64,000 nucleotides of DNA from Actinopolymorpha alba DSM 45243 (GTDB lineage: Bacteria > Actinomycetota > Actinomycetes > Propionibacteriales > Actinopolymorphaceae). Positions 58-53,367 of this stretch are shown piece after piece. The position numbers and the translations under genes are program-made. Where the stretch lies: NCBI RefSeq assembly GCF_000373925.1, contig NZ_KB892707.1:1-64000 (forward strand). Reading direction: 5' to 3'. Within the stretch, counting starts at the first letter, position 1. Each line of letters opens with the position of its first letter. A model generated the notes under the pieces. It saw only the letters and a list, made by a program, of their open reading frames with translations, made no database searches and had not been told where the DNA came from.

Positions 58-114
58 CGAACCTTGAGTAGATGACCAATTTCGGGTCGAGAGTGGGCAT
101 CTACTCAAGGTTCG
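58..114. repeat. 17-bp perfect inverted repeat
   Basis: The arms 58-74 (CGAACCTTGAGTAGATG) and 98-114 are exact reverse complements, separated by a 23-nt spacer. It could be a transcription end signal or the remnant of a small mobile element. No T-run follows either arm. Confidence 0.75.
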
Positions 115-7461: not shown

Positions 7462-7547
7462 AATGATCACGTTTACGTGGTCATTACCCGCTTCACATGG
7501 CACTGGTGCCGCGCGAGGTGGGTAATGACCACGTAAACGTGATCATT
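7462..7547. promoter_or_regulatory. 28-bp inverted repeat made of two pseudo-palindromes
   Basis: The arms 7462-7489 and 7520-7547 are perfect 28-bp reverse complements with a 30-nt spacer. Each arm is itself nearly palindromic (AATGATCACGT, TT, ACGTGGTCATT), giving four AATGAYCACGT half-sites. The centres are 62 bp apart, about six helical turns, so proteins bound at both would face the same side. It lies upstream of the GntR gene and could be a paired operator for it. A cruciform or 3'-end role is the alternative. Confidence 0.6.
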
Positions 7548-8378: not shown

Positions 8379-9613
8379 CCGAACGCCCTGCCGTCCAGCG
8401 CAGGATGCCTCGCTGGTCAGAGCTGAAGCCGTTGCTCCGCACCCGGCGGATCGAGTTGGACGCCACCAAACGGCGTCTCGACCGCGCCCTCACGATCGCC
8501 GACCTGCGGGCCATCGCCAAACGGCGTACGCCACGCGCGCCGTTCGACTACACCGACGGCGCGGCTGAGCAGGAGGTCAGCCTGCGCCGGGCCCGGGCGT
8601 TGTTCCGGCGCCTGCAGTTCAACCCGAGCGTCCTGCGCGACGTGTCGAAGGTCGACCCGAGCACCACGATCCTGGGCCGGCCCTCGGCGTACCCCTTCGC
8701 GCTCGCGCCCACCGGCTTCACCCGGATGATGCAGCACGAGGGCGAGCCCGCGGTGGTGCGCGTCGCCGAGCGGGCCGGTATCCCGTACGCGCTCTCGACG
8801 ATGGGCACCACCTCGATCGAGGACGTCGCGGCCGCCGCGCCCAACGCCGACAAGTGGTTCCAGCTCTACATCTGGACCGACCGTGCGGCCGGCAAGGACC
8901 TCGTCGACCGCGCGCACGCCGCCGGCTACACCACGCTGGTGCTCACGGTGGACGTGCCCGTGGCCGGTGCGCGCCTGCGCGACGTCCGCAACGGCATGAC
9001 CATCCCGCCGTCGTTGACGCCGAAGACGATCCTCGACATGGGGCTGCACCCGGCCTGGTGGATCAACATGCTCACCACCAAGCCGCTGTCGTTCGCCTCC
9101 CTGTCCGACTGGCCGGGCACGGTCGCCGAGCTCATCAACCACATGTTCGACCCGTCCGTGACCTTCGACGACCTCGCCTGGATGCGGGAGATCTGGCCGG
9201 GATCGCTGGTGGTCAAGGGCATCCAGAACGTCGAGGACGCCCGGAAGGTGGTCGACCTCGGCGCCGACGGTCTGGTGATCTCCAACCACGGTGGCCGGCA
9301 GCTCGACCGCGCGCCGATCCCGCTCCAGCTGGTGCCGAAGGTCGCCGACGCGGTGGGCGACCGGGCCGAGGTGTACGTCGACACGGGCGTGATGACGGGC
9401 GCGGACATCGTTGCCGCGGTGGCGCTCGGCGCCCGGGCCGTCCTGGTGGGGCGGGCGTACCTCTACGGGCTGATGGCCGGGGGAGAGCGCGGGGTGCAGC
9501 GGGCGGTCGACATCCTCGGGAACGAGGTACGCCGTACCCTGCAGCTGCTCGGCGTCCAGAATCCCGGCGAGCTGAACCGCTCCCACGTGACCCTGCCGGA
9601 GGTGGCGTTCTAG
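8375..9613 (+). CDS. FMN-dependent alpha-hydroxy-acid oxidase/dehydrogenase
   Basis: This 412-residue TIM-barrel enzyme oxidises L-2-hydroxy acids using FMN (lactate dehydrogenase LldD, glycolate oxidase and mandelate dehydrogenase family). The active-site signature [10 protein letters not shown] is present, with the catalytic base His305 and substrate-binding Arg308. The N-terminal [11 protein letters not shown], the FMN-binding ALAPTGF region and QLYIWTD match the family. It is longer at the N-terminus than glycolate oxidase. A GntR-FCD gene directly upstream with an ATGA overlap supports use of lactate or a related acid. The exact substrate is not determined by sequence. Confidence 0.9.
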
Positions 9614-9639: not shown

Positions 9640-9726
9640 CGGGCCTGGCAGGACCACCCTCGTCCGCCGGACTGCTCGCAAGCTCCCTTGACGTCTCGCC
9701 GGACGAGGGTGGTCCTGCCAGGCCCG
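9640..9726 (+). ncRNA. Family A stem-loop with conserved 33-nt loop, copy 1
   Basis: The arms 9640-9666 and 9700-9726 form a perfect 27-bp stem. The 33-nt loop (9667-9699) is, in reverse complement, identical at 32 of 33 bases to the loop of the hairpin at 52480-52562, whose stem sequence is different. It starts 27 nt after the oxidase stop, on the sense strand. The other copy is also just downstream of a gene in the same sense. The conserved loop with changed stems suggests a structured RNA or a 3'-end element with a bound partner. Confidence 0.6.
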
Positions 9727-9889
9727 ATCTGGCGGCGTTCCTCGCCCGGTGATCTTGGACTGCGCGACGATCTCAGGCCCGACTCAGGGGTCGCCCGGGT
9801 CGACCCAAGGGATCACCCTCGTGCATCCGCGCGGGTGGCGAGGCAGGATGGACGACGTACGCGGCAAGAGCGACGGAGGGGCATGCCTT

Positions 9890-10402
9890 ATGTACGACAA
9901 CGCCACCTGGTTTCCGATCTGTGCCGGGCTGTCTGCCGTCGGTGTGGTGGCGGCATTCTTCGCCTTCCGCCGGAAGGGGGTCGCCTCCGGGCTCCGGCTG
10001 CTCGGCTGGGCCGTGTTGCCGATGGCGATCTACCTGACCGGCATGGTGCGCCTGTTGTGGACGATCGGCCAGGCCCTGGTGCAGTGGGTGTCCGGATTCG
10101 TCTTCAGCCCGTTCGTCTGGACCGGCCTCGCGTTGTTCGCGTTCGCGGCGCTCGTGTTCCCGGTGGCTGCCCGGCTCCGGCGGCGGCAGGCGGGTGCGGC
10201 CGGAGCGTCGGCGTCCGGTGACGGCGCGACGACGCCGCTGCCCAAACAGGGGGAGACGGCGACCGCGGCGGGCAAGACACGCGGCGGAGACAAGGCAAAG
10301 GCCAACCCGAAGGCGGTTGGAAAGGGTACGCAGCAGGCCGCCAACCCCATGGAGGGCATGGAAGACATCGAGGAGATCCTCAAGCGGCGCGGGATCTCCT
10401 GA
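9890..10402 (+). CDS. Small membrane protein, unknown
   Basis: This 170-residue protein has about three membrane segments: residues 7-25, a stretch around GLRLLGWAVLPMAIYLTGMV, and WTGLALFAFAALVFPVAARL. A charged, low-complexity cytoplasmic tail follows, ending in the acidic helix MEGMEDIEEILKRRGIS. I chose the ATG at 9890 because CGGAGGGG lies upstream. Longer frames back to 9749 lack support. Its place before the dioxygenase-like gene and miaA looks like a conserved actinobacterial neighbourhood. I do not recognise its function. Confidence 0.75.
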   Translation: MYDNATWFPICAGLSAVGVVAAFFAFRRKGVASGLRLLGWAVLPMAIYLTGMVRLLWTIGQALVQWVSGFVFSPFVWTGLALFAFAALVFPVAARLRRRQAGAAGASASGDGATTPLPKQGETATAAGKTRGGDKAKANPKAVGKGTQQAANPMEGMEDIEEILKRRGIS

Positions 10403-45405: not shown

Positions 45406-45467
45406 GAGTTGGGTCCTGAAACTGTAGACCGCGCGGCCCTTCGGTCTACAGTTTCAGGACCCAACTC
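45406..45467. terminator. 25-bp perfect hairpin
   Basis: The arms 45406-45430 and 45443-45467 pair over 25 bp without a mismatch, around a 12-nt loop. Such a long perfect stem is far beyond ordinary terminators. It separates the convergent polymerase and regulator genes. Confidence 0.8.
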
Positions 45468-51751: not shown

Positions 51752-52462
51752 TCAGTTCTTGCGGGCCCAGCCCCACCCGTTCTCATCGCGGAACGCGCCG
51801 TAGGCGGGGTTCTGCCTGACCAGGAGTTCGTACACCTTGCGTACCTGCGGGGTCGACCGTTGCTCGGCGGGCAGCTGGCGCACCCACGTCATGTTCTTGA
51901 GGGTCGGTGAGCTATCGAGCGTCCAGTCCAGGTCGTCGAAAAGAACCCAGCCACCCGGCCGCAGCATCTGGTCGGCGAGCAGGAATGCGAACCCGTCCAC
52001 GTCCCACGTGTGCGCACCATCGATGAAGACGAAGTCGAACGCCGGAACCGGATCCCGCTCGAGGAGGCGCTGCAACTCCCAGGTATAGGAGGTGTCGGCG
52101 AAGATCGGTGTCACGCGGTGTGTCAAGCCGCACTTGCCGAGCAGCTCGTCGATGGTCGGAGACCGGTCCCGCGCGTTCTTCCGATCAATCGTCAGGACGT
52201 GGCCGTCCGTGCCCAGCTCGTCCAGGGCCGCCGCCAGGTAACAACTGGAGACTCCACTGGCGAAGCCGAGTTCGAGGATTCGGCGAGGGCGGGTCTCCCT
52301 GATGAACTCATAGAGCACCTGGCCCTGTGAGCGGGTCATGTGCGGAACGCCGCGTACGGCTGCGGCCACCTCGTCGAAAAGCACCCGCGTCACCGTAGTT
52401 GAGGACCTGCGAACGCCTGCCCGCGTACGGAGAAGCGCTCGGTGAACTCCTGGTGGAGTCAT
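51752..52462 (-). CDS. Class I SAM-dependent methyltransferase
   Basis: This protein of about 236 residues has a Rossmann methyltransferase fold (cephalosporin-hydroxylase/Methyltransf_24 type). RRILELGFASGVSSCYLAAAL is the SAM-binding glycine loop, GHVLTIDRKNA the acidic ribose position, and FDFVFIDGAHTWDVDGFAF then LRPGGWVLFDDLDW the later motifs. The start is uncertain: ATG 52462 is the first Met after the family A hairpin, but it lacks a good ribosome site, and a GTG about 23 codons later is possible. The substrate is unknown. Confidence 0.8.
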   Translation of the reverse strand: MTPPGVHRALLRTRAGVRRSSTTVTRVLFDEVAAAVRGVPHMTRSQGQVLYEFIRETRPRRILELGFASGVSSCYLAAALDELGTDGHVLTIDRKNARDRSPTIDELLGKCGLTHRVTPIFADTSYTWELQRLLERDPVPAFDFVFIDGAHTWDVDGFAFLLADQMLRPGGWVLFDDLDWTLDSSPTLKNMTWVRQLPAEQRSTPQVRKVYELLVRQNPAYGAFRDENGWGWARKN

Positions 52463-52479
52463 GGCAGACAAGGCGACGC

Positions 52480-52562
52480 GGGAGGTGGCGGAGACACTCA
52501 CTCGACGAGACGTCAAGGGAGCTTGCGAGCAGTCCGGCGAGGGCGTGTCCCTGCCACCTCCC
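52480..52562 (-). ncRNA. Family A stem-loop with conserved 33-nt loop, copy 2
   Basis: The arms 52480-52504 and 52538-52562 form a 25-bp stem with four mismatches. The 33-nt loop (52505-52537) matches the loop at 9667-9699 in reverse complement at 32 of 33 positions. It begins 8 bp after the stop of the hydrolase gene on the minus strand and precedes the methyltransferase gene. Sense relative to the upstream gene is the same as in copy 1. Confidence 0.6.
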
Positions 52563-52569
52563 GGCCCAG

Positions 52570-53367
52570 TCAGGTCCGCCGGGCGGGGCGTACGACGTCG
52601 GCGAACTCCAGCACGGTCTTCACCCACTGCTCGGGTACGTCCCGGTGGAGGTGATGGCCCCCGTCGAGGACCGCGAACCGCTCGGCCCTGACCCGCCGCT
52701 CGAACGTCAACCGGTCCAGACCACGAAGCGTGCTGAGCCGGCCCCGACCGGACGGATCGGGCTCGTCTGGAGCGACGACGAAGAGCGCCGGCGTGCGGAG
52801 GGTGCCGAGCATCGCGGGAAGATCCCAGGGGCGCGGCGCGCGCAGGCCGGCGACGAGCGCTGGAACGTCCGCGGCCTCGATGCCCTCGACGGCGTACTGG
52901 ATGTCTTCGGGCGCCCAGCGCGGATGGTCCGCGCCCAGTCGCTCGACGAACCGCTCGCGACCCGAACGCACCATCGAGGACTCGGCCACGACGGCGTCGA
53001 CGATGGCGGCGCGCTCGTCGGCGCCGGAGCTCAACGGATCTTCGAGAACCACCGCGTGGGCGAGGTTGACGTAGCGGCTGGCGAGAGCGAGGGAGACGAC
53101 CGCGCCGAGTCCGTGCCCGACGAGGAGGTCAAGCTGGCCGGGCAGGCGTTCGGTGACCCCCTGGACCAGCGTCGGCAGGTGGAGCGGCCGGTCGATCCGT
53201 GGTGACGTGCCGTGGCCGGGCAGGTCGAGCGCGACCACGTGCCAGCCGTGTTCGGCGAGTTCGGGGCCGATCCGCCACCACGTCGAGGCCCGGGATACCT
53301 CGCCGTGAAGGAGCACCAACCGGCCGCGCACGGGCCCGAGTGGCTCCCACCGAAGAGTCATCCGCAT
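52570..53367 (-). CDS. Alpha/beta-hydrolase fold protein lacking the serine
   Basis: This 265-residue protein has the canonical alpha/beta hydrolase layout: oxyanion region RLVLLHGEVSRASTWW, DLPGHGTSP, the acid residue in VVAPDEPDPSG and the His in DGGHHLH. At the nucleophile elbow it reads VGHGLG, with Gly86 where Ser of GxSxG is expected. It is probably inactive as a serine hydrolase and may act as a binding protein, or use a different mechanism. The ATG at 53367 is chosen. The frame runs to 53391. The family A hairpin follows. Confidence 0.85.
   Translation of the reverse strand: MRMTLRWEPLGPVRGRLVLLHGEVSRASTWWRIGPELAEHGWHVVALDLPGHGTSPRIDRPLHLPTLVQGVTERLPGQLDLLVGHGLGAVVSLALASRYVNLAHAVVLEDPLSSGADERAAIVDAVVAESSMVRSGRERFVERLGADHPRWAPEDIQYAVEGIEAADVPALVAGLRAPRPWDLPAMLGTLRTPALFVVAPDEPDPSGRGRLSTLRGLDRLTFERRVRAERFAVLDGGHHLHRDVPEQWVKTVLEFADVVRPARRT

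What the first reader, a model, noticed from the sequence alone, without database searches (positions are those of the whole stretch)
9640..9726. Stem-loop family A: conserved 33-nt loop, different stems, two copies
The loops at 9667-9699 and 52505-52537 are the same in reverse complement at 32 of 33 positions, while the stem arms (27 bp perfect and 25 bp with four mismatches) differ in sequence but still pair. Both lie 8-27 nt downstream of a gene and in the same sense. Loop conservation with stem change is what a structured RNA, or a hairpin recognised by a protein or transposase, would show. I do not recognise it from any described family.
Basis: partly seen in the sequence, partly recalled or inferred. 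Interest (0 to 1): 0.8.

Follow-up and report, generated by a model that had tools for sequence, protein, structure and literature searches.

The report
Dispersed hairpins with one shared loop
One actinobacterial genome carries 17 scattered hairpins, mostly just behind genes, that share a nearly identical 30-letter loop on stems that differ in sequence but still pair; nothing like them was found in related species and what reads the loop is unknown.

Summary
The window's two hairpins belong to a family of 17 copies (15 with full stem and loop, one with part of the loop deleted, one degenerate tandem copy), plus two truncated ones, across the 8.0 Mb genome. The 30-31 nt loop (consensus GGACTGCTCGCAGGCTCCCTTGACGTCTCG) is about 95% conserved. 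The inner 8-9 bp of stem is about 62% conserved and carries a recurring pyrimidine mismatch. The outer stem is near background identity between copies yet pairs almost perfectly (28 of 37 pairs change on both sides; 0 of 500 shuffles reach this). Twelve of 14 intact copies beside a gene end follow it in the same sense, behind lox-type, infB, relA, valS and rplI genes among others. Nothing related occurs in five congeners, 392 genomes of the order, Rfam or viral contigs; an exact scan of 84,980 species gave only chance-like hits. Loop types are shuffled among stem types, stems show no G-U excess, and no transposase is linked. I read it as a lineage-specific dispersed hairpin element acting at mRNA 3' ends, whose loop is the recognised part and whose outer stem only needs to pair. 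Whether RNA or DNA is recognised stays open.

The parts
9640..9666 (+). 5' arm of hairpin 1 (27 bp, perfect)
9667..9699 (+). conserved loop, copy 1 (module core GGACTGCTCGCAAGCTCCCTTGACGTCTCG at 9669-9698)
9700..9726 (+). 3' arm of hairpin 1
8405..9613 (+). upstream gene, FMN-dependent alpha-hydroxy-acid dehydrogenase (lox-type); stop codon 26 nt before hairpin 1
9848..10402 (+). downstream co-directional gene, no Pfam match (start approximate)
52538..52563 (-). 5' arm of hairpin 2 (minus-strand sense, 26 bp with 4 non-WC positions including the recurring C.T mismatch)
52505..52537 (-). conserved loop, copy 2
52479..52504 (-). 3' arm of hairpin 2
52570..53331 (-). upstream gene of hairpin 2, alpha/beta hydrolase; stop codon about 7 nt before the hairpin
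51752..52393 (-). downstream co-directional gene, O-methyltransferase-like

Best explanation
A lineage-specific family of small dispersed hairpin elements that sits mainly at the 3' ends of mRNAs, in gene sense. SHOWN: the unit is a hairpin of about 80-90 nt. A 30-31 nt loop plus an 8-9 bp inner stem with a recurring pyrimidine-pyrimidine mismatch forms the sequence-conserved module; the outer 12-20 bp are free in sequence but pair. INFERRED: in the transcript the hairpin forms a very stable 3' structure that ends transcription or blocks 3' exonucleases, and the loop is the docking site of an unidentified trans factor (RNA-binding protein, small RNA or termination factor). Outer arms are kept complementary by selection helped by template switching during replication, while loops are occasionally exchanged among copies.
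For: 17 copies in one genome. Covariation score 0.671 against 0.200 for shuffles, and 28 pairs with changes on both sides, 0/500 shuffles. Three-tier conservation with a sharp edge at columns 27/28 and 75/76. Mismatch at 30.73 in 10 of 15 full copies. 12 sense to 2 antisense beside gene 3' ends, often within about 30 nt of the stop codon and in tandem gene pairs, unlike other long hairpins of this genome, 42 of 72 of which lie between convergent genes. The 5' outer arm is G-rich in 12 of 14 informative copies, the kind of G-C asymmetry described for RNA stems (PMC8794818). Two of the three copies that lost the outer stem also have decayed loops and the third is cut within the loop, which ties loop and stem together.
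Against: No U-run follows the hairpins, so they are not canonical terminators. G-U pairs are no commoner than A-C among stem mismatches, 5 against 4 in 366 pairs, whereas RNA-level selection would tolerate G-U. No congener has the loop, so the trans factor or its specificity would have to be lineage-specific. Two intact copies are antisense and two lie upstream of genes. No transcript data. The orientation bias is modest (12 to 2, two-sided binomial about 0.013).
Confidence: 0.48

Rival explanations
1. A non-autonomous mobile DNA hairpin of REP/IS200-like logic: a single-strand DNA nuclease or transposase recognises the folded DNA by its loop and stem mismatch, spreads it, and the 3'-end location reflects survival of harmless insertions.
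For: Restricted to one species yet dispersed to unrelated sites; subfamilies such as c01/c08 and c12/c28/c35 share whole hairpins but not flanks; REP transposases are known to read loop and mismatched stem bases (PMC8266576); nine Y1 transposase matches in this genome, none in four of five congeners.
Against: No family A hairpin lies beside any of the five Y1 genes of this genome that were examined; no GTAG or CGTC tag or other conserved terminus at the foot of the hairpin; no larger element carries the loop; insertion by itself does not explain unrelated but paired outer stems or the sense bias.
Confidence: 0.3
2. Purely mutational: old plain hairpins whose arms are homogenised by template switching and whose loops are homogenised by ectopic gene conversion, with no recognised loop.
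For: Loop distance and outer-stem distance are uncorrelated (rho 0.13), identical loops sit on unrelated stems (c27/c28, c03/c04/c05/c06), 30- and 31-nt loop types occur in the same stem groups; template switching is documented to create and maintain perfect hairpins (PMC8794818); another palindrome family here also shows matched arm changes.
Against: Conversion over a tract of about 48 nt between copies with non-homologous flanks is expected to be rare; it does not predict gene-sense orientation, the recurring mismatch, or invariant loop positions.
Confidence: 0.14
3. A 48-nt module inserted into the apex of pre-existing, unrelated terminator hairpins, each gene supplying its own outer stem.
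For: Sharp drop to background identity at columns 27/28 and 75/76; unrelated long hairpins are common at gene ends in this genome; the degraded tandem copy next to c10 has an inner stem only.
Against: Pairs at columns 23-27 are Watson-Crick in all 14 aligned copies, so no leftover host loop bases flank the module; weak residual similarity persists at columns 20-27 (p about 8e-4); subfamily stems were not found without the module; four of five congeners have no hairpin behind the lox-type gene.
Confidence: 0.06

Closest known systems
REP / BIME elements mobilised by TnpA-REP (RAYT)
   Same: Small intergenic palindromes in many copies, lineage-specific; loop and stem mismatch can be recognition determinants (PMC8266576).
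   Different: REP stems are 5-13 bp and tagged GTAG or CGTC (PMC3733652). Here stems are 15-31 bp, outer stems are not conserved, there is no tag, the loop is 30-31 nt and no RAYT is associated.
Pneumococcal BOX / RUP / SPRITE repeats
   Same: Interspersed hairpin-forming repeats; SPRITE resembles a terminator (PMC3049150).
   Different: Those keep recognisable whole-sequence families and, for SPRITE, a U-rich tract; here only the loop module is conserved and no U-tract follows.
Intrinsic (Rho-independent) terminators
   Same: GC-rich hairpin directly after the stop codon.
   Different: No U-tract; a 30-nt loop of fixed sequence, which ordinary terminators lack.
Iron-responsive-element-type mRNA hairpins (from general knowledge)
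   Same: Design of fixed loop plus fixed stem irregularity on a stem of free sequence, read by a protein.
   Different: Eukaryotic, different sequence and size; an analogy of design only.

Membership tests
REP (GTAG/CGTC) elements | Unpaired GTAG or CGTC tag at the hairpin foot | tested here: not met
   Columns 1-9 and 94-103 of the 15-copy alignment are near background identity (0.25-0.40)
REP (GTAG/CGTC) elements | Short stem of 5-13 bp with family sequence (PMC3733652) | tested here: not met
   Stems 15-31 bp, outer part near background identity
REP (GTAG/CGTC) elements | Associated Y1/RAYT transposase gene flanked by the element | tested here: not met
   Five Y1 loci of this genome examined, no family A hairpin nearby; the other own-genome Y1 matches had no locus returned and were not examined
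Intrinsic terminator | Stable GC-rich hairpin just after a gene | tested here: met
   MFE -53 to -80 kcal/mol for the window copies; location after stop codons
Intrinsic terminator | Run of U after the hairpin | tested here: not met
   3' flanks read directly
Intrinsic terminator | Ends transcription | not testable with these tools
   No RNA-seq or Term-seq available
Rfam RNA families | Match to a curated covariance model | tested here: not met
   No match at gathering score in the window; only sub-threshold microRNA-like fits to the long stems
MITE | Conserved terminal inverted repeats in all copies | tested here: not met
   Outer arms pair within a copy but are unrelated between most copies
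MITE | Target-site duplication | not tested
   Element ends are not defined by sequence, so no systematic test was made

The most novel reading that the evidence does not exclude
A lineage-specific 3'-end regulon: one trans-acting factor reads a fixed RNA loop placed behind about a dozen unrelated mRNAs, including infB, relA, valS and rplI, and sets their 3' ends or stability, with the outer stem a sequence-free spacer kept paired by template switching.
Probability: 0.22. Interest if true: 0.8.

Novelty: new variant of a known kind. Interest (0 to 1): 0.56.

Why it matters
Dispersed bacterial hairpins are usually defined by conserved stems. Here the sequence constraint sits in a long loop and inner stem while the outer stem is free to change as long as it pairs, in one genome and with about 15 natural variants. 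That gives a ready test of what maintains perfect stems (selection or template switching) and of whether a lineage can acquire a new loop-reading 3'-end signal on housekeeping genes.

Tried and rejected
Ordinary repeat or IS remnant: rejected, flanks and most outer stems are not shared. Autonomous element carrying the loop: none found. Relatives outside the species: none in 57 relatives, 392 genomes of the order or viral contigs; 17 exact matches in 84,980 species, none in an actinobacterium, single matches read as chance. Weak covariance-model hits in other genomes are other sequences or other hairpins (L110-L112 and L114 inspected). Trans-antisense RNA to the loop core: remaining near-matches to the 14-nt core are at the level of the reversed control. 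Orthologous 3' ends in congeners: intergenic regions too diverged, unrelated or no hairpins, so no clean empty site. Link to Y1 transposases: none seen. G-U test for RNA: gives no support. A flexible-gap pattern for another palindrome family found nothing.

Full report
CHECK. The loop recurs twice in the window against none in shuffles, and both hairpins fold far better than shuffled sequence.

FAMILY. The genome that holds the window (8.0 Mb, 127 contigs) has ten copies within 3 mismatches of the loop, twelve with a consensus pattern, and further ones found with shorter patterns and a covariance model, which gave 17 hits in this genome. After inspection these are 15 with full stem and loop (called c01-c10, c12, c27, c28, c35 and c130 here), one with a full stem but part of the loop deleted between CTCG repeats (L131), and one degenerate tandem copy beside c10 with an inner stem only (L011). 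Two truncated copies (L026, L038) come on top.

ANATOMY. Fourteen copies align without gaps except one column in the loop. Of all cells at the 37 pairs, 90.5% are standard pairs, 28 pairs have changes on both sides, and no shuffle reaches any of the measures; sliding the partner by 1-3 columns destroys the signal. Column identity shows three tiers: loop about 0.95, inner stem about 0.62, outer stem near background, with a sharp symmetric edge at columns 27/28 and 75/76. Position 30.73 is a pyrimidine mismatch in ten of the 15 full copies. Pairs 23-27 are Watson-Crick in all 14 aligned copies. Weak residual similarity remains at columns 20-27 but not 12-19; this test does not correct for position-specific composition.

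MOSAICS. Loop distance and outer-stem distance are uncorrelated (rho 0.13, p 0.20). Four copies with identical loops have unrelated or weakly related outer stems, and the 31-nt loop occurs in stem groups that also hold the 30-nt loop. Loops and stems have therefore been reassorted, or outer stems replaced. Subfamily stems were not found outside family A hairpins.

LOCATION. Genes were called with a simple codon-usage script, so gene starts are approximate. Of the intact copies next to a gene 3' end, 12 are in gene sense and 2 antisense; two others lie upstream of genes (L118, and L128 ahead of an SMC-type gene). Upstream genes include a lox-type dehydrogenase, infB, relA, valS, rplI, an SBP_bac_5 protein, an amino-acid permease and a trypsin-like protease. 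Most copies lie between co-directional genes, while other long hairpins in 795 kb of this genome lie mainly between convergent genes. No U-run follows the hairpins.

DISTRIBUTION. The loop was not found in 57 relatives including five congeners, in a covariance search of 12 relatives apart from weak hits that on inspection are something else, in 392 genomes of the order or in viral contigs. Orthologous 3' ends of six genes in seven relatives carry other hairpins or none. From the genome sizes of the neighbours I guess an actinobacterium of the order Propionibacteriales; this is inference and was not tested.

RNA OR DNA. For RNA: sense orientation, 3'-end position, G-rich 5' arms. Neutral or against: no G-U excess, no relative with the loop, no Rfam match. 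For a DNA element: dispersal within one species and Y1 transposases in this genome, but none of the five Y1 loci examined has a family A hairpin nearby. Template switching is a documented way to create and maintain perfect stems (PMC8794818) and would explain matched changes without G-U intermediates.

VERDICT. Anatomy and family status are secure. The functional reading, a 3'-end hairpin element with a recognised loop, is the best supported but is an inference. It is not a member of REP, MITE, Rfam or canonical terminator families by the features tested; it works most like a dispersed palindromic repeat whose conservation has moved from the stem to the loop.

Noticed in passing
window 7462-7547; also C1 and C2 of the same genome: A second palindromic repeat family with conserved stem AATGATCACGTATACGTGGTCATT and a more variable loop, in which several copies are extended outward by unique but paired bases (e.g. 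C1:423788, C1:77351).
   Followed up: partly
window 45406-45467; C1:202507, C1:243520, C1:461450, C2:96350: A third hairpin family (GAGGTCGCGAACTGTAGA and relatives) whose two arms change together between copies, suggesting matched stem changes are common in this genome.
   Followed up: partly
C1 and first 240 kb of C2 of the own genome: 75 long-arm hairpins in 795 kb, 42 of the 72 intergenic ones between convergent genes; the congener G003 has 8 in 220 kb.
   Followed up: partly
window 58-114: Hairpin CGAACCTTGAGTAGATG...CATCTACTCAAGGTTCG, a sequence repeated elsewhere in the genome (e.g. C2:231750 and near L035).
   Followed up: no
C1:156122, C1:210914, C1:212400, C2:107141 of the own genome: A small hairpin group with related loop CAAGGTGAATTTGCCGCG on stems of the AATGATCACG type.
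   Followed up: no
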